Assembly: GCA_017412645.1 (NCBI GenBank)
Contig: JAFPWX010000022.1
Span: 152,650 to 216,649 of the forward strand
DNA from: Bacteroidales bacterium
GTDB taxonomy: Bacteria > Bacteroidota > Bacteroidia > Bacteroidales > UBA932
DNA length: 64,000 bases
Direction: 5' to 3'
This document shows positions 6,917 through 22,161 of this stretch, piece after piece. The notes under the pieces are model-generated. The model was not told the DNA's origin and searched no databases. It saw only the letters and a list, made by a program, of their open reading frames with translations. Positions within the stretch are counted from its first letter, which is position 1. Every line of letters starts with the position of its first letter. The position numbers and the translations under genes are program-made.

Positions 6917-8707
6917 TTACTTGCCTGCGCCGGAGATATCGATGTTGCCCGGGATGACGCTGCGGGCGCTTTTTACCACCTTTCTCCAGTCCTTGGTCAT
7001 CAGCAGATATTTGAGGCTGTCGGACGGGTTGGTGGACTCGTTCGGAAGGCGCGAAAGTTCCAGTTTTTCGGTCGATTTGTCCTTATAGACCACCCCGTTC
7101 TTCATTATGAGCCGGGCCCGCTCAAGGGAGTTCTTGAGTTCCTTCGCCGCCTTCATGTCGATGCGCAGCAGCGGGAGCCGGACATTGTCTTCGCTCATAA
7201 GTATCTGCATGAAGTGGTACTCTTCGCTCTGGTAGATGGTGCCCTGTCCCCGGCTCATCAGATGAACCGTCCAGCCGGTGGGCCGGCCCGCTTCGTCGCG
7301 CTCGATGGCGTTCTTGAGTTCACCTGCATAGTCTTTCTTCACGTCTTTGTTGGCATTGCCGGCACGGTCATAGTACATGAATACCACGCGGTTGGTCATG
7401 GGGGCAAAGTAGGTCCTGAACTTCTCACCAAGTTCCTTCAGGTACGCGGGTGAAAGCGTGTAGAGGAACTTGATGACGCGTATGATATCGCGGGTGGAAC
7501 CGGATTCCTTTTGCAGCTGTGCGATGCTCATGCTGTTCATCCTTCCTCCAAAATCCACCCCGAGCCGCAATGGCAGGGCTGGGTTGCAGTGCTTGAGGAC
7601 GACGCATGTTTCCTGGCCAAGAAGCGCTATTTTATCATACTCCGCCTCATTGATGCTGTCTTCGAAGAAGTGGAACTCACAGAGCCTCGGATAGAACTTG
7701 TCCCCGGTACTGAGAGTGGAACGCATTGACAGCACTGCCGTCTGTGTGTCCGGAAGTGAAGCGGCGAACGCATCTGCGAACCAGTCGGCCCCGAGGATGT
7801 CTGCGTTTACATAGCTTGATGCACGCAGGTAGAGCGTATCCGCATCTGGCTGCAGGCGTGTCCGGATCCAACGCTCGCGCCAGCGTGAAGCGACGGCAAG
7901 CTTCGCCTCATACGCCTTGCGAGCCTTCTCGCTCCCGCTATCCACCCAGGCGTCTTTCGCCGCGATGGCCTCGCGGAGGGCTTCGTTATAAACCAGGCCG
8001 GCACGTATGACAAGGAGTATGGCCTCTTTGTTCATATTCCGCGCCTGGCTGCGCATCCAGTCGTATTCCCCCACGTGCGACGGATCGGCCACGTCCGAGG
8101 TGAAGAACTGGCCTCTGTAGTATGGACTTGACTTGTATTGCGGATATCCACGTACGGCCTTGAGCAAATTCGCAATCTGCGCCGGCTTGAGGTACTTCGC
8201 TTCATCGCCTATCACGAAGACGAAGGAACGGCCGGCAAGCGTCGAAGGCCTGTCTATAGATCCGAAGGTGATGTTCAGACCCGTGAAGAAGATTATGGTG
8301 CGCTTGTATGAGATTATATGGTTCACCGGATTCCAGAAATGCGGACGCAGCCACTCCTGCAGGGATTCCCGTTCCTTGTCGCTGAACTCCGGAGGAGCAG
8401 TCTCCACCACATAGTGGACGCCTTCCCGGAATCCCTTGCGCTCCAGGCCTTCCAGGACGGAAGGAAGGATATTGGAAGACAGGTTCGAGAATGTGTCGGC
8501 AATCCAGGCGATGGGAGCGCCAGGCAGCTCGTACACCAGTTCGATAAGCAGAGAACAGAGTATCTCCGTTGTCTTGGCTGAGCCGCGGCCGAGTTCCAGG
8601 AAAGTTTTTCTTGCCCCGACCAGGGAGATGATCTGGGCGAATTTGTTCTGGTAGAGTATGTCGGCCGAACGGGTTTTGTCCAGGTTAATTTTCTTCCTCG
8701 ATGGCAT
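6917..8707 (-). CDS. phage terminase large subunit
   Basis: A 596-residue packaging motor. Residues 40-47 carry the Walker A variant GRGSAKTT, and residues 163-170 (VFVIGDEA) the Walker B with catalytic acid. The C-terminal nuclease starts near residue 381 (LRLGVDFGG, Asp385 a likely metal ligand). This is the normal two-domain ATPase-nuclease layout that cuts concatemeric phage DNA and pumps it into proheads. It overlaps the upstream small-subunit-like gene by 23 bases. Confidence 0.93.
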   Translation of the reverse strand: MPSRKKINLDKTRSADILYQNKFAQIISLVGARKTFLELGRGSAKTTEILCSLLIELVYELPGAPIAWIADTFSNLSSNILPSVLEGLERKGFREGVHYVVETAPPEFSDKERESLQEWLRPHFWNPVNHIISYKRTIIFFTGLNITFGSIDRPSTLAGRSFVFVIGDEAKYLKPAQIANLLKAVRGYPQYKSSPYYRGQFFTSDVADPSHVGEYDWMRSQARNMNKEAILLVIRAGLVYNEALREAIAAKDAWVDSGSEKARKAYEAKLAVASRWRERWIRTRLQPDADTLYLRASSYVNADILGADWFADAFAASLPDTQTAVLSMRSTLSTGDKFYPRLCEFHFFEDSINEAEYDKIALLGQETCVVLKHCNPALPLRLGVDFGGRMNSMSIAQLQKESGSTRDIIRVIKFLYTLSPAYLKELGEKFRTYFAPMTNRVVFMYYDRAGNANKDVKKDYAGELKNAIERDEAGRPTGWTVHLMSRGQGTIYQSEEYHFMQILMSEDNVRLPLLRIDMKAAKELKNSLERARLIMKNGVVYKDKSTEKLELSRLPNESTNPSDSLKYLLMTKDWRKVVKSARSVIPGNIDISGAGK

Positions 8708-9638
8708 CGTCCAGAGTCTTTATGATGTCGAAATCCTTAATGCCGGCTTCGCGCTTGAGGCGGTCTGCTTCGGCTGCAGGCAACTCCAGCGCGTCGATCT
8801 GGGCGCCCAGGGCATCGCGGCTCACCGTCGGCAGACCTATGGACTCCGGCGCCAGACTCGACACTATGAACTTGCGGGGGTAGTTCTCCGGAGCCACGGT
8901 TTCAGGCTCCGGCTGGTCCAGCTGCAGAAGCTTTGCACGTTTGTCCAAAATCCCTGCCGCAAGGGCGAAATCCTGCGGAGTCTTCGCGGTTTCCAGGATG
9001 GCGTGATAGAGCGTGTCGTAGCTTTCCGCAATATGATACCGCATAGCCTGGCGGGTGTTACGACGTCCGCCGTTAAAAAGTTCTATGGCTTCCGCCAGCA
9101 TCTCTTTCGCCTGGGGGAAAGCCAGGGCGAACGGTTCCTTCTGAAGTAGCTGCAGGGTCTTGCGGTCGCCGAAGCGAAGCTGGAAGGAATATATCATCTG
9201 CAGGGCCTGGATGTACAGCTGTTCATCGCTGTCGAAGCGGCCGGACTTGCCGGAAGAGAGCAGCTGCTCCACCGATTCGAAAAGGGACGGATCATCCGCT
9301 CCTCCGAAAAGGTCGAGCTTCGTGAGTTTGAACGAACGTTCCCGGACCATGTCCGAGAAGAGCTTTATCGATGTCTGGTTGCCGGACTTCGCATCACTCA
9401 GCAGTTTGGACTCCATCTCAAAGGTGGCTTTCAGTTCACCTTTGAGGATGGCCTTCCTTACATCACTCGCCGGATCGTGCATCTCCGCTTCCAGGGCACT
9501 GGCATCCCAGCCGAAGAAGGTCGCGATGTCGTCAACGCTCCATCGCAGCTCCCCCAGTTTCTCCAGCTCGGTCAGATCGGTATCTGACGGGGTGATCTTC
9601 GAGTATGCAGGATTTGTAGAACTCATATATCCGTTCAT
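8685..9638 (-). CDS. terminase small subunit-like protein
   Basis: A 317-residue protein directly upstream of and overlapping the large terminase. Residues 30-50 (LRWSVDDIATFFGWDASAL) look like the helix-turn-helix DNA-recognition segment of small terminases, followed by a helical oligomerisation region. It is longer than most small terminases (150-200 residues), so extra domains are likely. Start may be the ATG at 9638 or at 9626 (MSSTNPAY). Its first 100 bases overlap the alternative C-terminal frame of the PLD-like gene upstream. Confidence 0.72.
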   Translation of the reverse strand: MNGYMSSTNPAYSKITPSDTDLTELEKLGELRWSVDDIATFFGWDASALEAEMHDPASDVRKAILKGELKATFEMESKLLSDAKSGNQTSIKLFSDMVRERSFKLTKLDLFGGADDPSLFESVEQLLSSGKSGRFDSDEQLYIQALQMIYSFQLRFGDRKTLQLLQKEPFALAFPQAKEMLAEAIELFNGGRRNTRQAMRYHIAESYDTLYHAILETAKTPQDFALAAGILDKRAKLLQLDQPEPETVAPENYPRKFIVSSLAPESIGLPTVSRDALGAQIDALELPAAEADRLKREAGIKDFDIIKTLDDAIEEEN

Positions 9639-10187
9639 TATTGCAGATTGTGTATTGTTCGTTGCCGGAATTCTCCGCGAAATTGCCGGATCCGGTGATT
9701 ACTATTTTACCCCCCCCCCGGTGGAGGCGAGCGTCACCTTGGAGTGATTGAATCCAAGGCCTATCCGAACCTTCTCCGCGCGGGCCGCGACCGCCGATTT
9801 CAAATAATCCCATTTTGCCGGGCTCATTCGCGGAACGTAATCGCTCAAGTAGAGATATACGCTGCGGATCTTTCCTTTGTCCAGCCAGTCGAAGAGCGTC
9901 TGGCAGCAGATGTTGCTGATACTGTAGGTGCTCACTATCAGTTCATCTATATTCCCCAGGGATTCAATGAGCCAGATTATCATCGACATCGTGTTGAACT
10001 GGGCAGTGGTCCAAAGGAAGAGCATCTCTCCCGGGCCCGGAGGCGCGGCTACGTTCTTGCGTATGTTCGCCACTTTCGCCACGTGCATCTCTTCGAAGGC
10101 CTGCACAGCTGCCGCTGTCTTCCCTTCCGGGCGCTCTGGCATCTGAGGTGCGGGGGCTGCCGGGACTTCAAGTGAGAAGAGGCCCAT
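9532..10187 (-). pseudogene. PLD-superfamily protein, split by a G10 tract
   Basis: The intact frame runs from the ATG at 10187 to a stop at 9702 (161 residues) and carries the start of a phospholipase D HKD motif (HSKVTLA, about residues 147-153). The second half of the motif, GKIVITGSGN followed by NEQYTICNNERIYEFY, is in the next frame, immediately after a run of ten G on this strand (9710-9719). With 8 or 11 G the two halves join into a protein ending at 9532, overlapping the small-terminase gene. Single-HKD proteins usually act as dimers, as nucleases or phosphodiesterases. The tract could be a phase-variable switch, a programmed slippage site, or a sequencing error. Confidence 0.75.
9710..9719. 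repeat. homopolymeric C10/G10 tract
   Basis: Ten consecutive C on the plus strand, i.e. G10 in the coding direction of the PLD-like gene, exactly between the HxK and GSGN parts of the catalytic motif. One extra base or two fewer would restore the frame. Confidence 0.97.
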
Positions 10188-10874
10188 TCACCTGGTGCGT
10201 TTATCGGATTCGGCAATCATGCCCTCGACTACTTCCAGCTGACGCCGTTTTGCTTCGATGCGCTCTTCGCGGGAATCCTTGAGGTGGGGTTTGTCTCCCC
10301 TGCGAATCTCCGACTCCGCCCGCCAGATGGCACCTTTTAGGCGCTTGCTTTCGGCGACCAGCTCCACGACGCTCATTTTCCGGTAGGCATCGTACTGTCT
10401 GGACTGAGCGAATACCGGGTGTTTGCCAAGGATTTTACCGTGCTCTTTGTAATACGCAAATTCGGCTGTGATCTGCCGGTTTTGCTGAAAATTTTTCAGC
10501 AGTTTTTTTGCAGTTTCGAAACAGTCTTCCAGAGATCCACACTCGAAGAGTGCTCTATGTCCTTCGATGGTCCCTTCATAGGCAGTGATTTTGTCGTTGG
10601 CCAGGATCTTCAACTCTACCGGACAGCCGGGCTTCGAGAGGAACGGCCACTCTTCACGAAATCGGTTGCGGGGCTGAGGTTCCGGAGGCGCAAGCAGCTG
10701 CCCGGCCGGCACGTCGGAATAGCCGGAAAGGGCCTTCACCAACTGCGATTTATACAGTCTCGGCCGTGCCGTGACGAGACGTTCCAGCAACGGGTTCGGA
10801 GTATATATGCCAAGGAGCCGAAGCCCTTCACGGACCTCGGCTCCACCTCTGAGCCATAGTGCTACGTCATTCAT
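10188..10874 (-). CDS. phage protein, helical, unrecognised
   Basis: I choose the ATG at 10874 (MNDVALWLRGGAEVREGLRLLG), 228 residues, which overlaps the upstream gene by 8 bases; a further upstream start would overlap by 77. The N-terminal half is compact and mixed; the C-terminal third is strongly charged and probably coiled-coil (RAESEIRRGDKPHLKDSREERIEAKRRQ). The PLD-like gene follows directly. No family recognised. Confidence 0.6.
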   Translation of the reverse strand: MNDVALWLRGGAEVREGLRLLGIYTPNPLLERLVTARPRLYKSQLVKALSGYSDVPAGQLLAPPEPQPRNRFREEWPFLSKPGCPVELKILANDKITAYEGTIEGHRALFECGSLEDCFETAKKLLKNFQQNRQITAEFAYYKEHGKILGKHPVFAQSRQYDAYRKMSVVELVAESKRLKGAIWRAESEIRRGDKPHLKDSREERIEAKRRQLEVVEGMIAESDKRTR

Positions 10875-11460
10875 TGCGGTCGGATTTAGCGTAATCTTGC
10901 AGCAGGTCGGAAATGGCGTTCCAGCCTGTGAGCGAGCAGCCAAGGAACCGCCTTGAGAGCAGCGCCTCTATGACCTTGTGCCGGCAGGGCGAACCGGACA
11001 GCACCTGGAAGAAGTATCCGTCGGGAGATGCGTGCGAAACCTTTAAGGGACGTCCGTTCGGGACGGTGCAGTCCCTGATGCATTTCTCTGTGTCAAAGTC
11101 TGACGTTTCCTTGAGACCGGAGAGGTATTCCACGACTCTTTCTTTGCTCAGGCGGACCGGAACGCGGCTGCTGTACTTCACATCACCGTTGCCCGCAGAT
11201 ACATAGACCGCCGGAAAGAGAATAGTTTCTACAGAGGTCGGTCCGAGTGGGACGGTGTTGGCCTGTACAAGAACGAAATCCTCGCCGATGGCGGCGTCGG
11301 TCACGATATCCAGAAGCACTTCCATGACGGAGTAGTCCTCCGGAACGCTCAGGATCATAACCGTTCCGGAGAACCGTTTCTCCCAGAGAGCCCGCATCAG
11401 GTCTTCCGTGCCTTCATAGGCCAGGACGATTACGGGATAGTTGTCGAGAGACTCCGCCAT
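10867..11460 (-). CDS. phage protein, unrecognised
   Basis: A 197-residue protein between the probable tail-tube gene and the charged helical gene. The N-terminal half has alternating hydrophobic strands (VIVLAYEGTEDLMRALWEKRFSGTVMILSV). The C-terminal part contains several Cys (KCIRDCT, SPCRHK, LGCS). It touches the upstream gene by one base (TAATGG arrangement), pointing to translational coupling. No function assigned. Confidence 0.6.
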   Translation of the reverse strand: MAESLDNYPVIVLAYEGTEDLMRALWEKRFSGTVMILSVPEDYSVMEVLLDIVTDAAIGEDFVLVQANTVPLGPTSVETILFPAVYVSAGNGDVKYSSRVPVRLSKERVVEYLSGLKETSDFDTEKCIRDCTVPNGRPLKVSHASPDGYFFQVLSGSPCRHKVIEALLSRRFLGCSLTGWNAISDLLQDYAKSDRNE

Positions 11461-12002
11461 TATTCACCTGCGCTTTCGTCCTCGGCGTCTTCGGCCACTG
11501 CGGGCAGGGTGCCGGTATAGACGCGGGGCACATAGGCGTCTCCCATCTCCTGGGTGAAGGAGAGGTGGGTCTTCAGGCCGTCCTTGCTGTCGGTCGGCTC
11601 AGCGCTCAGCACCAACGGGTTGCAGGTGCGACCGTAGATCTTCGTCGGAGCGTCGCAGCTCTGGACGATGATGATGACGCCCTTGTTGGCGTATGCCTCG
11701 ACGAAGTTGTTGAGCGCGACGGAATCGCCGGGATAGTCGAACTCGACCTTGTCTGCGAACACTTTCGCGTCCACGTCGCCGGAGTTCTCGTAGCCTACGC
11801 TGATGGAAGAGCGGGACACCTGGATGGCCACGGCCTTGGCTCCTTCGTTCAGCGCAAGGTTGGAGCTCGTGCTGGTGTTGCCGAACTCGCGGGTCACGTC
11901 GGTTGCCACGTCGTCCACATCGATGATGTAGATCTTATCCTTCTTTGCCACGGCAGCGCCGCCGCCGGGAATCTTGGGAATGGATGCTTTTACGTAAGTC
12001 AT
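11460..12002 (-). CDS. virion structural protein, possible tail tube
   Basis: A 180-residue acidic beta-rich protein encoded 64 bases after the capsid gene. The sequence has repeated beta strand patterns (KIYIIDVDDVATDV, GVIIIVQSCDAPTKIYG) and an acidic disordered C-terminus. Size, solubility and position right after the major capsid protein suit a tail tube or decoration protein. The call is from context; no specific motif is present. Confidence 0.5.
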   Translation of the reverse strand: MTYVKASIPKIPGGGAAVAKKDKIYIIDVDDVATDVTREFGNTSTSSNLALNEGAKAVAIQVSRSSISVGYENSGDVDAKVFADKVEFDYPGDSVALNNFVEAYANKGVIIIVQSCDAPTKIYGRTCNPLVLSAEPTDSKDGLKTHLSFTQEMGDAYVPRVYTGTLPAVAEDAEDESAGE

Positions 12003-18800: not shown

Positions 18801-21800
18801 TCAGAGCAGAGGTATATCCTCCAGTTCCGTAGCAGGCGGAGCTGCAGGAGTGGTCGCCGGGGTATCGTCATCATCGGAGCCGGGAGCGCTGAGCACATCG
18901 AGGCTGATTCCGTAGCTGTCCATAAGCGCGTCATAATCGAACACCATCGCGGTAGTCACCTTCGTCTTGGGCGCGTTCGGATTTATGTAACCCGTCGCAT
19001 TCTCTATAATCTTGAACTTCACCTTTTCACAGGTGCCCACGAATTCCGGAGAGTGCTCCAGGTAATACTTGAGGGTGTCCGACGGTAGCGTCTTTCCTTG
19101 CGTATCCCGGCCTTCCTTCTGATACAGGCCGGACACTCTCTTGAAGTTGACGAACAGGTAACGCCTGTCGGGGTGCGGGGTGAAGACGCCTCCGTTCTTG
19201 GCGGCCTCCTTGGTCTTTATCGGACGGTCGCCGTCCTTGATGCGATAATCGACGTTCATCCATATCCTGGACGATGCGACCAGAGTCTCAAGCGTCTCCC
19301 AGAATCCGGACAGTTCGTTGTTCTGCTGGGTCTTGCTGTTCTGGTCGACGCACATCCTGGCACATAGGTCGAGCATCTCCTTGTAATCGAACGGGAAGTC
19401 AAGGGAACTCTCAAGAGTCTTATACGCAGCGAGCACCGTACACCAGTTCTGCAGAGTACGCGCTTCGATGCCGTATGTCCGGACTCGCTTCATCATATCC
19501 GCCTGCACATCCTCCCACGCAATCCGAAATCCTCCCTGGAAGCGGTTCCGGTTCTGCAGTATCTGGCCGGTAAGGTGTGAGAGGCCCCGGCGCTCGATAC
19601 GCTTGAGTTCATCGTAGGCCATCCGCTCGGCATCACTGAAGGCGGTCTTGCTGAACGGCAGGAAGACCACACGGTTGAAGAGGGCGATATCCGGGTGCGT
19701 GAGCATCTGCTGGCCGGAGATAATGACTCCGGAGTCCACAGCCGTGGTCACGCGCTTCTTGTTATTGTCCATATCCATCTTCGACCGGCCCTGGCCGTCC
19801 CAGATGGCCTTGAGGAACTCCCGCCGGTCGATGTCGATGTCCTGCCGGAACTCCTCCAGGTGCACAATAGCGTTCGAGACTTCCGCCACCGCTTCGGCAA
19901 GAGCAGCTTTTGTGGATCCAGAGATGTTCGGAGCCTCGAAGTTGCCGGTGACAAAGAATGCAGACAGTGAATGGCCAAGGGCGGACTTCCCCGTCCCCTT
20001 GGGGCCGAAGAGGTTCAGTATCGGGAACTGGATGGTGACACCGGTCACGATATCCTTGAAGAGAGTGGCCACCAGGAAGCAGAGCGCCACCTTGGCGTTG
20101 TCGCCGAATACGTTCACGAGTTTTTCCGCATAGGCCCTCAGTGTGATATCATTAGTAATCCCATACGTGAACCGCCGGTCGAGCATATACGCCTGGGTGT
20201 TCGTCTCAGTGTCGGCCGCCATTCCCGGCAGATAGAACCGGTGGTCCCCTACTTTCACGATTCCGTACTTATCGGCCGGTACAAAGTCGGCGCCGTCAAG
20301 GCAGCCGTTACCCCAGGCATAGATATTCCATCGTTTCTGCCATCCCAGCTGCTTCACTTCATCGGCGCTCGGAGTGTCGTCGTAGAGATACTTCTTCAGC
20401 TGGGTGAGCTCTGCTGCAGTAGCCTCCCAGACATAGTTGCCGGCCGTCTCCGTGCGGGTCTTGAAGTCGGCAAAGGAGACCAGCTCACTCTGGTTGAACT
20501 TGATGACCGATTCCTGCCGTTTCTGGTTCACGATGCGGTAGATGCGCTTCGCGTTGCGTTCATCCTTGATATGCAGCACCGGTTCAAGGATGAAGTTCGA
20601 CCAGCGACGGTCCGCTCCGCTTGCCGATGCTCCGTAATAGCAATTGTCCTTGATATAGAACCCGTATTCCTTCAGCATCTCACGGGACTTGTCGTCCACG
20701 CTCTCCGTCTGGCGCTGCCTGGCATTGCGGGCCTTGAAGTATTCGGCATTCCAAATCTTCTGGTACTTGTACTTCTTCACAAAGTCCGCAAGGTACATAT
20801 CCACCACCGACTGGTCCGAACACCAGGCCATAAGGCCGCATATTTCGGCGATGGCCATCGACACCTCCGCCTGGGAGGTCTTGCCTTTCATCGTACGCTC
20901 CGCCGTCCAGGGAATATAGTCCTGCGTGTCGCTGGTAAGCGTCTCCTCCCATCTTGCCGGATAAAGCTTGAAATATTCGTCCGGATCCTTGGGGCCTTCC
21001 TTCCGTTCCGCATCATAGCCCGTCCATTCCACCACCCGGACCTTGAATCCCGCCTTCAGAAGGTCTTCGCCCTGCCGGCTTGCCGCCTCGCGGCCGGGAC
21101 GGTCCATATCGCCTGCGATGATGACCGTGTCCACGTGCTTCTTCAGGTATTCCACGTTCGCCGGAGTGAGGGCCGTGCCCATGGGGGCGATGGCATTGCC
21201 GACTCCTATCTGATGCAGCCGTACCACGTCCGGATTCCCTTCGCAGAGCACCACCGTGCTGTTGGTCTTTGCTACCCGGCGGGCCTGGTACCAGCCGAAA
21301 AGCATCTCCCCTTTCTTGAAGAGGAGCGTTTCCTTGGTGTTCTTGTACTTCGCGATATCAGTCCTGTCACCGACGTACCGGCCGGTGAACCCTGCAATAT
21401 AACCTGTCTTCGAATATATGGGAAACATAATGCGGTCCCGGAAGGCATCGTAGTAGTTGCCGTCATCGGTCACCCCGGCAAGGCCGGCTTCCATTATGAG
21501 GTCCCGCTTCCAGCCAGCAGTCATCAAGTCCTGCAGAAGGCCGCCAGCCTTCGGAGCGAAGCCGATTCCGAACAGCTTCACCATATCCTCCTTCCAGCCG
21601 CGTTTCTTGATGTAATCCTGGGCTGCAGGAGCGGAGTTGAACCGGCCGATGAACCAGGCCTGAGCCGCCTGATTGAGTGCTATGAGCTGCTCCTTCTTGT
21701 GCGAGGCCTCGCGCTCCTCCGGAGTGGGTTCATGCTTCTCATACTGGATACCCAGTTTGCCGGCAAGGTATTCGAGCGCCTCCGGATAGGTCATCTGATA

Positions 21801-22022
21801 CTTATCACGCACAAAAGCGATGGCATCCCAGCTCTTGCCTTCCCCGAAGCAGGTGGCGATATTCCGCGTCGGTGATACCATGAAAGAGGGCGTCTTCTCG
21901 TTATGGAACGGGCAGCAGCACTTATAGTATGCTCCTTCGCGCTTGAGTTCAAGCCCTTCTTCTTTCAGGATGCTCACAAGGTCGGCATCCTTTATCTGCT
22001 CTTTTACATATTCAGGAATCAT
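18801..22022 (-). CDS. DnaG-type primase fused to a phage helicase
   Basis: A 1073-residue replication protein. Residues 35-70 form a CHC2 zinc-binding segment (CPFHNEKTPSF, then TCFGEG); ligands Cys37, His40 and Cys58 are present, but the fourth Cys is replaced by Glu61. A DnaG catalytic core follows, with a Toprim site at Glu261 and Asp305/Asp307 (AGDMDRPG). The C-terminal half carries an ATPase with Walker A GPKGTGKS at 673-680. Such fusions prime and unwind phage DNA. An acidic disordered tail (SDDDDTPATTPAAPPATE) closes the protein. Confidence 0.9.
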   Translation of the reverse strand: MIPEYVKEQIKDADLVSILKEEGLELKREGAYYKCCCPFHNEKTPSFMVSPTRNIATCFGEGKSWDAIAFVRDKYQMTYPEALEYLAGKLGIQYEKHEPTPEEREASHKKEQLIALNQAAQAWFIGRFNSAPAAQDYIKKRGWKEDMVKLFGIGFAPKAGGLLQDLMTAGWKRDLIMEAGLAGVTDDGNYYDAFRDRIMFPIYSKTGYIAGFTGRYVGDRTDIAKYKNTKETLLFKKGEMLFGWYQARRVAKTNSTVVLCEGNPDVVRLHQIGVGNAIAPMGTALTPANVEYLKKHVDTVIIAGDMDRPGREAASRQGEDLLKAGFKVRVVEWTGYDAERKEGPKDPDEYFKLYPARWEETLTSDTQDYIPWTAERTMKGKTSQAEVSMAIAEICGLMAWCSDQSVVDMYLADFVKKYKYQKIWNAEYFKARNARQRQTESVDDKSREMLKEYGFYIKDNCYYGASASGADRRWSNFILEPVLHIKDERNAKRIYRIVNQKRQESVIKFNQSELVSFADFKTRTETAGNYVWEATAAELTQLKKYLYDDTPSADEVKQLGWQKRWNIYAWGNGCLDGADFVPADKYGIVKVGDHRFYLPGMAADTETNTQAYMLDRRFTYGITNDITLRAYAEKLVNVFGDNAKVALCFLVATLFKDIVTGVTIQFPILNLFGPKGTGKSALGHSLSAFFVTGNFEAPNISGSTKAALAEAVAEVSNAIVHLEEFRQDIDIDRREFLKAIWDGQGRSKMDMDNNKKRVTTAVDSGVIISGQQMLTHPDIALFNRVVFLPFSKTAFSDAERMAYDELKRIERRGLSHLTGQILQNRNRFQGGFRIAWEDVQADMMKRVRTYGIEARTLQNWCTVLAAYKTLESSLDFPFDYKEMLDLCARMCVDQNSKTQQNNELSGFWETLETLVASSRIWMNVDYRIKDGDRPIKTKEAAKNGGVFTPHPDRRYLFVNFKRVSGLYQKEGRDTQGKTLPSDTLKYYLEHSPEFVGTCEKVKFKIIENATGYINPNAPKTKVTTAMVFDYDALMDSYGISLDVLSAPGSDDDDTPATTPAAPPATELEDIPLL

Positions 22023-22023
22023 C

Positions 22024-22161
22024 TTATACGCTCCTCGTTATCGGACACCAACCGAAATCTATAGGTTTGCCGCAGCCCCCCCCCCCGTGCAGGTACCAGC
22101 GGCACGAGAGACAAAGGTTCCGGCCCCTGACGGGACCGTTGCTCATTTTGAGTATATACAT
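22024..22161 (-). CDS. small zinc-finger protein with a G11 tract
   Basis: A 45-residue frame starting MYILKMSNGPVRGRNLCLSC and ending CGKPIDFGWCPITRSV, with four Cys (CxxC...C...C) that could bind one zinc ion. An uninterrupted run of eleven G in the coding strand encodes four Gly between the Cys pairs, so one-base slippage would remove the second half of the finger. It stops one base before the primase start. The Cys pattern and tight spacing support it being real; function unknown. Confidence 0.6.
   Translation of the reverse strand: MYILKMSNGPVRGRNLCLSCRWYLHGGGGCGKPIDFGWCPITRSV
22076..22086. repeat. homopolymeric C11/G11 tract
   Basis: Eleven consecutive C on the plus strand, within the small zinc-finger frame. 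With eleven bases the frame is intact. Together with the G10 tract at 9710 it gives two long G runs in the same prophage. Confidence 0.97.

What the first reader, a model, noticed from the sequence alone, without database searches (positions are those of the whole stretch)
9532..10187. G10 tract splits the catalytic motif of a prophage PLD-family protein
The frame up to 9702 contains HSKVTLA and then stops right after ten G. The next frame, starting inside the tract, continues with GKIVITGSGN and a typical PLD C-terminus. Only a tract of 8 or 11 G would join the HxK and GSxN parts. Homopolymeric G runs are classic contingency loci, so this could be an on/off switch for a nuclease or phosphodiesterase inside a phage late operon. 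The extension also overlaps the first 100 bases of the terminase small-subunit gene, meaning two proteins would be read from the same DNA.
Basis: partly seen in the sequence, partly recalled or inferred. Interest (0 to 1): 0.75.

Follow-up and report, generated by a model that had tools for sequence, protein, structure and literature searches.

The report
Poly-G tracts in a gut prophage
A run of ten Gs splits a prophage gene for a nuclease-like protein that is whole in nearly all relatives examined, and the same prophage carries a second long G run in a tiny gene whose relatives are naturally found in and out of frame through such runs.

Summary
Ten G (9710-9719, minus strand) separate the HxK half and the GSxN half of one phage protein; both halves hit the same PHROG. 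The fold of an intact relative is PLD-like. The break looks recent: the 22 codons after the tract show no amino-acid change against the nearest relative but many silent ones. It is the only split gene among 17 compared with a syntenic prophage. But the tract is not a conserved contingency locus: in 117 of 118 homologous loci the motif lies in one frame with fixed spacing, and none of the 118 has a G/C run of 7 or more in the gene. Unstable off-state, plain loss and sequencing error cannot be told apart without reads. The better switch lies 12 kb away: G11 (22076-22086), in frame in a 45-aa Cys-rich gene before the primase. Of 15 homologues of that gene (window included) 13 carry a G or C run of 8-11, at two different places. 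Two near-identical pairs differ by one base of tract; one member of each reads through, the other does not. So homopolymer switching in this prophage family is likely real; for the PLD gene it is plausible but unproven.

The parts
9710..9719 (-). G10 tract that separates the two halves of the PLD gene
9702..10187 (-). PLD-like protein, N-terminal part with HxK (161 aa ORF)
   Evidence: (phrog_20533, 36-158 of 202)
9532..9813 (-). ORF whose part after the tract (about 9532-9708) is the PLD C-terminal part with GSGN
   Evidence: (phrog_20533, 162-195 of 202)
9532..9638 (-). overlap of the PLD C-terminal frame with the next gene
   Evidence: two open frames also in L007, L008, L010
8685..9638 (-). 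next gene, 317 aa, by position the probable small terminase (unproven)
6917..8707 (-). large terminase, 596 aa
   Evidence: (phrog_2, E 2.2e-7)
10188..10943 (-). conserved gene upstream of the PLD gene (phrog_21662)
22024..22161 (-). small Cys-rich ORF, 45 aa, frame intact
22076..22086 (-). G11 tract inside the small Cys-rich ORF, in frame
18801..22022 (-). primase/helicase-like gene (1073 aa) directly after the small ORF; name by eye from an N-terminal Cys motif, recalled

Best explanation
The prophage belongs to a family in which long G/C homopolymers act as slippage sites. At 22076-22086 a G11 tract sits in frame in a tiny Cys-rich gene; in relatives of that gene a tract of 8-11 recurs at one of two places and one-base length differences put the gene in or out of frame: a phage-borne contingency (phase-variable) gene, here in the readable state. 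At 9710-9719 a G10 tract has recently arisen in the loop between the two catalytic strands of the PLD nuclease-like gene and has put its C-terminal half out of frame. I take this copy to be an unstable off-state made by the same slippage, expected to change at tract-mutation rates, rather than a conserved switch. Shown: tracts, split, signs of recency, absence of the tract in the homologues examined, and natural length variants in the small gene. Inferred: slippage as the cause, reversibility of the PLD break, and that loss of the PLD protein weakens the late (packaging) programme.
For: G10 and G11 tracts, two of the three runs of 9 or more in the 1.8 Mb genome. Both halves one family. Syntenic prophage of G054: of 17 sense ORFs that match the window, 16 match in one alignment, the PLD gene alone in two. 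Post-tract 22 codons pS 0.77, pN 0.00 against L010, so the frame was in use until recently. Fixed 21-residue HxK-GSxN spacing in 117 of 117 with the motif. In the model of the G054 protein the tract position falls at the turn between strands 151-156 and 159-165. Small gene: 13 of 15 homologues with a tract of 8-11; 9 of the 13 read through from an ATG, 4 do not. L280 (G9, reads through) and L283 (G8, does not) are identical from start to stop codon except for the tract; L284 (C9, reads through) and G311 (C8, does not) differ from start to stop in the tract and one substitution.
Against: None of 118 homologous PLD loci has such a tract. No reads, and no second copy of this phage to show length variants of the PLD tract. 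G9 or longer occurs in 323 of 400 genomes of the genus, and in 15 of 24 tract loci inspected the tract lay in no stop-to-stop segment with a good coding score (rough), so tracts also arise without a gene. The variant pairs of the small gene come from metagenome assemblies, where tract length can be miscalled. Part of the constraint after the tract may come from an overlapping start in G054.
Confidence: 0.5

Rival explanations
1. Sequencing or assembly error in tract length: the strain's PLD gene is whole and only the G count in the assembly is wrong.
For: G10 is hard for several platforms (general knowledge). The motif is in one frame in 117 of 118 homologous loci and both sides show purifying selection. 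It is the only break among 17 compared genes.
Against: The sequencing platform is unknown. The longer G11 tract of the same prophage is assembled in frame. Long G/C tracts as such recur in many separate assemblies.
Confidence: 0.27
2. Ordinary fixed loss of function: the prophage is losing the gene through a frameshift that happens to lie in a homopolymer.
For: A PLD homologue of Bacteroides heparinolyticus DSM 23917 (L181) is also broken between the two motif halves, with no homopolymer. A tract in this place is absent from the other 117 loci too.
Against: The 16 other compared genes of the module match in one alignment; a G10 tract mutates far faster than other sequence (general knowledge of homopolymers), so the state is unlikely to be final.
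Confidence: 0.17
3. Recoding: ribosomes or RNA polymerase slip on the G10 run and make some full-length protein without any DNA change.
For: The two frames are related by one slip within the run; long homopolymers are slippery (general knowledge).
Against: Homologues need no recoding: one open frame in 117 of 118. The 70 nt after the tract fold little better than shuffles (z -1.06, 33 of 200 shuffles as good; with the tract included z 0.74, 156 of 200). Not conserved.
Confidence: 0.06

Closest known systems
Homopolymer (poly-G/C) contingency loci of Neisseria, Campylobacter, Helicobacter, Bordetella
   Same: Long G/C runs inside an ORF or just after its start whose one-base length differences put the gene in or out of frame (seen here for the small gene)
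   Different: Host is a Bacteroidales genus; the passages seen of the review PMC11868660 speak of DNA inversion for Bacteroides. The gene is phage-borne. The PLD tract has no counterpart in the homologues examined and was not tested for variation
PLD superfamily nucleases (NgoAVII R protein 4rct, SauUSI 7clg, mouse Zucchini 4ggj; NucT)
   Same: Fold (Foldseek E 2.5e-6 to 7.4e-6 for the first three, TM-score by query 0.46-0.53) and a single HxK...GSxN motif; PLDc_2 at E up to 0.01 in 15 of 43 aligned members
   Different: Much shorter than the restriction enzymes; found beside terminase genes of Bacteroidota phages; no activity known. The G054 protein itself scores below Pfam's cut-off (18.2 of 27 bits)
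Flavobacterium phages (Duneviridae, e.g. FPSV-F7, laban6-1) PLD-like gene
   Same: Homologous gene (13 records), with two or three genes between it and a 1.7-kb ORF that by length and order should be the large terminase, though annotated hypothetical; laban gp033 annotated with PF13091
   Different: 28.7-32.8% identical; in one frame in the two records read

Membership tests
PLD superfamily, single-motif nuclease-like | HxK and GSxN motif in one chain | tested here: not met
   In this copy the motif halves lie in two frames; met in 117 of 118 homologous loci
PLD superfamily, single-motif nuclease-like | PLD fold | tested here: met
   Model of the G054 relative, mean pLDDT 82.6; the first four PDB matches are PLD-superfamily nucleases (one NgoAVII chain, two SauUSI chains, Zucchini), followed by MITD1, BJ-TSA-9, polyphosphate kinase and phosphatidylserine synthase. 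Tested on the relative, not on the split copy
PLD superfamily, single-motif nuclease-like | phosphodiesterase or nuclease activity | not testable with these tools
   -
Homopolymer contingency locus: PLD gene | long tract inside the ORF whose length sets the frame | tested here: met
   G10, halves in two frames
Homopolymer contingency locus: PLD gene | tract kept in relatives | tested here: not met
   0 of 118 homologous loci with a G/C run of 7 or more in the ORF
Homopolymer contingency locus: PLD gene | length variants within a population or between close copies | tested here: inconclusive
   no contig with the exact flanks in IMG/VR; no reads at hand
Homopolymer contingency locus: small Cys-rich gene | tract kept or regained in relatives | tested here: met
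   13 of 15 homologues, at two positions
Homopolymer contingency locus: small Cys-rich gene | length variants that change the frame between close copies | tested here: met
   L280/L283 and L284/G311
Homopolymer contingency locus: small Cys-rich gene | switching changes a phenotype | not testable with these tools
   -

The most novel reading that the evidence does not exclude
Temperate phages of this Bacteroidales genus carry homopolymer switches as part of their own programme: a recurrent one in a tiny Cys-rich early gene and, in this prophage, a newly arisen second one in the PLD gene of the packaging module, so that a lysogen population holds prophages that differ stochastically in early control and in late competence.
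Probability: 0.25. Interest if true: 0.75.

Novelty: new variant of a known kind. Interest (0 to 1): 0.5.

Why it matters
Phase variation by homopolymers is well known for bacterial surface genes. Here it is placed in genes of temperate phages of gut Bacteroidales, in a gene family with natural in-frame and out-of-frame copies that can be read straight from metagenome data. If true it gives phages a fast, reversible way to vary their own genes, and it warns that long G runs make phage genes look broken in assemblies.

Tried and rejected
Conserved PLD contingency locus: rejected as stated, because none of 118 homologous loci has a tract. Limits of that count: of 239 viral-contig relatives only the best 80 were kept by the tool, and broken copies rank lower; 38 came from the genome collection; some of the 118 are near-identical to each other, some begin inside the gene.

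Programmed frameshift: no clear RNA structure and no conservation. Pfam on the split pieces gave nothing; the PLD assignment came from the homologues and the fold. The profile search of solved structures gave three weak hits: a glycosyltransferase at E 0.16, NucT at 0.27, a guanylyltransferase at 0.92.

Genus-wide tract survey: 24 tract loci (23 of other genomes, one of the own) were looked at with a rough coding score; in 9 of 24 the tract lay in a stop-to-stop segment scoring above 15. Used only as background.

Small-gene homologues: the seed was found among 61 of 150 genomes with a match at E up to 1 (G048 at 1.8e-5 was the only match below 0.001 other than the window itself). In one search, 197 of 400 genomes had a match at E up to 0.5; six, own included, were below 0.001. 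One search looked at 19 chosen genomes (own, known hits and carriers of the related phage module); 9 matched at E up to 0.01, eight of them below 0.001. I counted those below 0.001 and dropped the rest, among them G422 at 0.0096. The first two seeds both had G tracts, which may favour such relatives; members with C tracts at the other place, or with no tract, were found all the same. Pfam and PHROGs gave no family for six members tried. A weak hit in MT835518 (E 0.1) I judged to be chance: stops shortly before it, and a longer open frame across it in another phase.

Papers: searches (the first two found nothing; the others list 20 of 118, 20 of 91, 12 of 17, 12 of 27, 3 of 3 and 3 of 3). Seen: listings with abstract starts, and passages of PMC11868660 (12 of 15 places) and PMC5567051. 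I saw no homopolymer-switched gene of a Bacteroidales phage in those listings; this is weak evidence of absence, as only an open-licence library and capped lists were seen.

Full report
What is there. On the minus strand of a prophage late module, ten G at 9710-9719 separate two ORFs, 9702-10187 and 9532-9813. Both hit phrog_20533, the first at profile positions 36-158, the second at 162-195 of 202. The HxK part and the GSxN part of a PLD motif are thus split. The genome is a 1.8 Mb assembly in 26 contigs.

Chance. In the window, G/C runs fall from 43 of length 5 to one of 6 and one of 7, then come a 10 and an 11. Markov models of order 1, 2 and 3 give 0.52, 0.15 and 0.13 runs of 9 or more per 64 kb. 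The genome has three runs of 9 or more, two in this prophage. In 1.02 Mb around 118 related phage loci no G/C run of 8 or more occurs. In the genus, 323 of 400 genomes have at least one run of 9, so such runs are common there.

What the gene is. The intact relative P0001 (G054) is 217 aa in one frame and 66% identical over the first 158 residues. Of 43 aligned members 15 hit PLDc_2 at E up to 0.01, the G054 protein itself at 0.0023, under Pfam's curated cut-off. A model from 40 sequences (pLDDT 82.6) matches PLD nucleases first in the PDB (NgoAVII R protein, two SauUSI chains, mouse Zucchini), then other PLD-like folds; among viral models a polyphosphate-kinase-like phage protein comes first and a NucT-like phage nuclease second. 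Flavobacterium phages have a homologue at the corresponding place.

How the split compares with relatives. Of 118 homologous loci (80 kept of 239 viral relatives, 38 of the genome collection) 117 have the motif in one frame, always spanning 21 residues from H to N; the 118th, L181, is broken without a homopolymer. None has a G/C run of 7 or more in the ORF. In the fetched piece L195 of the G054 prophage I count 17 sense ORFs of 100 aa or more that match the window; 16 match in one alignment, the PLD gene in two. Left out of this count: one gene cut by the ends of the pieces, an alternative-frame ORF inside the primase, and antisense ORFs. After the tract, 22 codons before the next gene's ATG show pS 0.77 and pN 0.00 against L010, and 0.98 and 0.07 against L067; the part before the tract shows pS about 0.7 and pN 0.24 against both. 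In G054 a possible start of the next gene lies within that stretch, so part of the constraint may come from it. The break is therefore recent or recurrent.

The second tract. G11 at 22076-22086 lies in frame in a 45-aa Cys-rich ORF (22024-22161), which ends one base before the start codon of the 1073-aa primase-like gene. Homologues: G048, G444, G385, G311, G105, G054, G347, seven IMG/VR contigs. With the window these are 15; 13 have a run of 8-11: G between the second and third Cys in seven, C between start codon and first Cys region in six. Nine of the 13 read through from an ATG within 75 nt, four do not; the two without a tract also read through. L280 and L283 (94-97% identical over two long pieces) do not differ between start and stop codon except for 9 against 8 G; L284 and G311 (95.6% over 770 bp) differ there by 9 against 8 C and one substitution. 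In each pair one reads through and the other does not. This is the signature of a contingency locus. No Pfam or PHROG family was found. Other tracts in these prophages: G8 seven bases before a possible TTG start of the primase in G385, and G9 in frame in another small ORF of G054.

How it most likely works. Slippage on long G/C runs (established for such runs in other bacteria; inferred here) changes length by one base; in the small gene this turns reading on and off. The PLD tract lies in the turn between the two catalytic strands, where extra residues may be tolerated, as the small gene's G tract lies in a loop of variable length. The PLD copy as assembled is off. I take it for an unstable state of recent origin. 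The early stop also ends translation 63 nt before the next gene's ATG, so the overlap of the two genes (107 bp here by the second frame, 149 in G054) is lost for ribosomes on the first ORF; whether this lowers the next gene's expression is unknown.

Limits. No reads; platform unknown; no near-identical copy of this phage found. Metagenome assemblies can miscall tracts, which also bears on the small-gene pairs. The name small terminase rests on position. The motif names HxK and GSxN and the primase call by eye are recalled.

Noticed in passing
window 22024-22161: Small Cys-rich phage gene with in-frame G11; family with recurrent G/C tracts and natural read-through and non-read-through copies.
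   Followed up: yes
L289 (reverse complement) 2505-2512: G8 run seven bases before a possible TTG start of the primase in the G385 prophage.
   Followed up: partly
L194 17818-17826: G9 in frame in another small ORF of the G054 prophage.
   Followed up: partly
L181 5932-6447: PLD homologue of Bacteroides heparinolyticus DSM 23917 broken between the motif halves without a homopolymer.
   Followed up: partly
window 8685-9638: The 317-aa gene hits two phrogs in two parts (17-92 and 175-308), as if fused from two genes that are separate in Flavobacterium phages.
   Followed up: no
window 11460-12002 and L198 14882-15421: The 180-aa protein of G054 matches two places in this prophage region, at 74% and 61% identity: two copies of one late gene.
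   Followed up: no
G000 contigs C4, C8, C10, C11, C12, C13: In the first 100 places listed, many C6 and G6 runs lie 18-19 bases apart on opposite strands, as in a repeated hairpin element.
   Followed up: no
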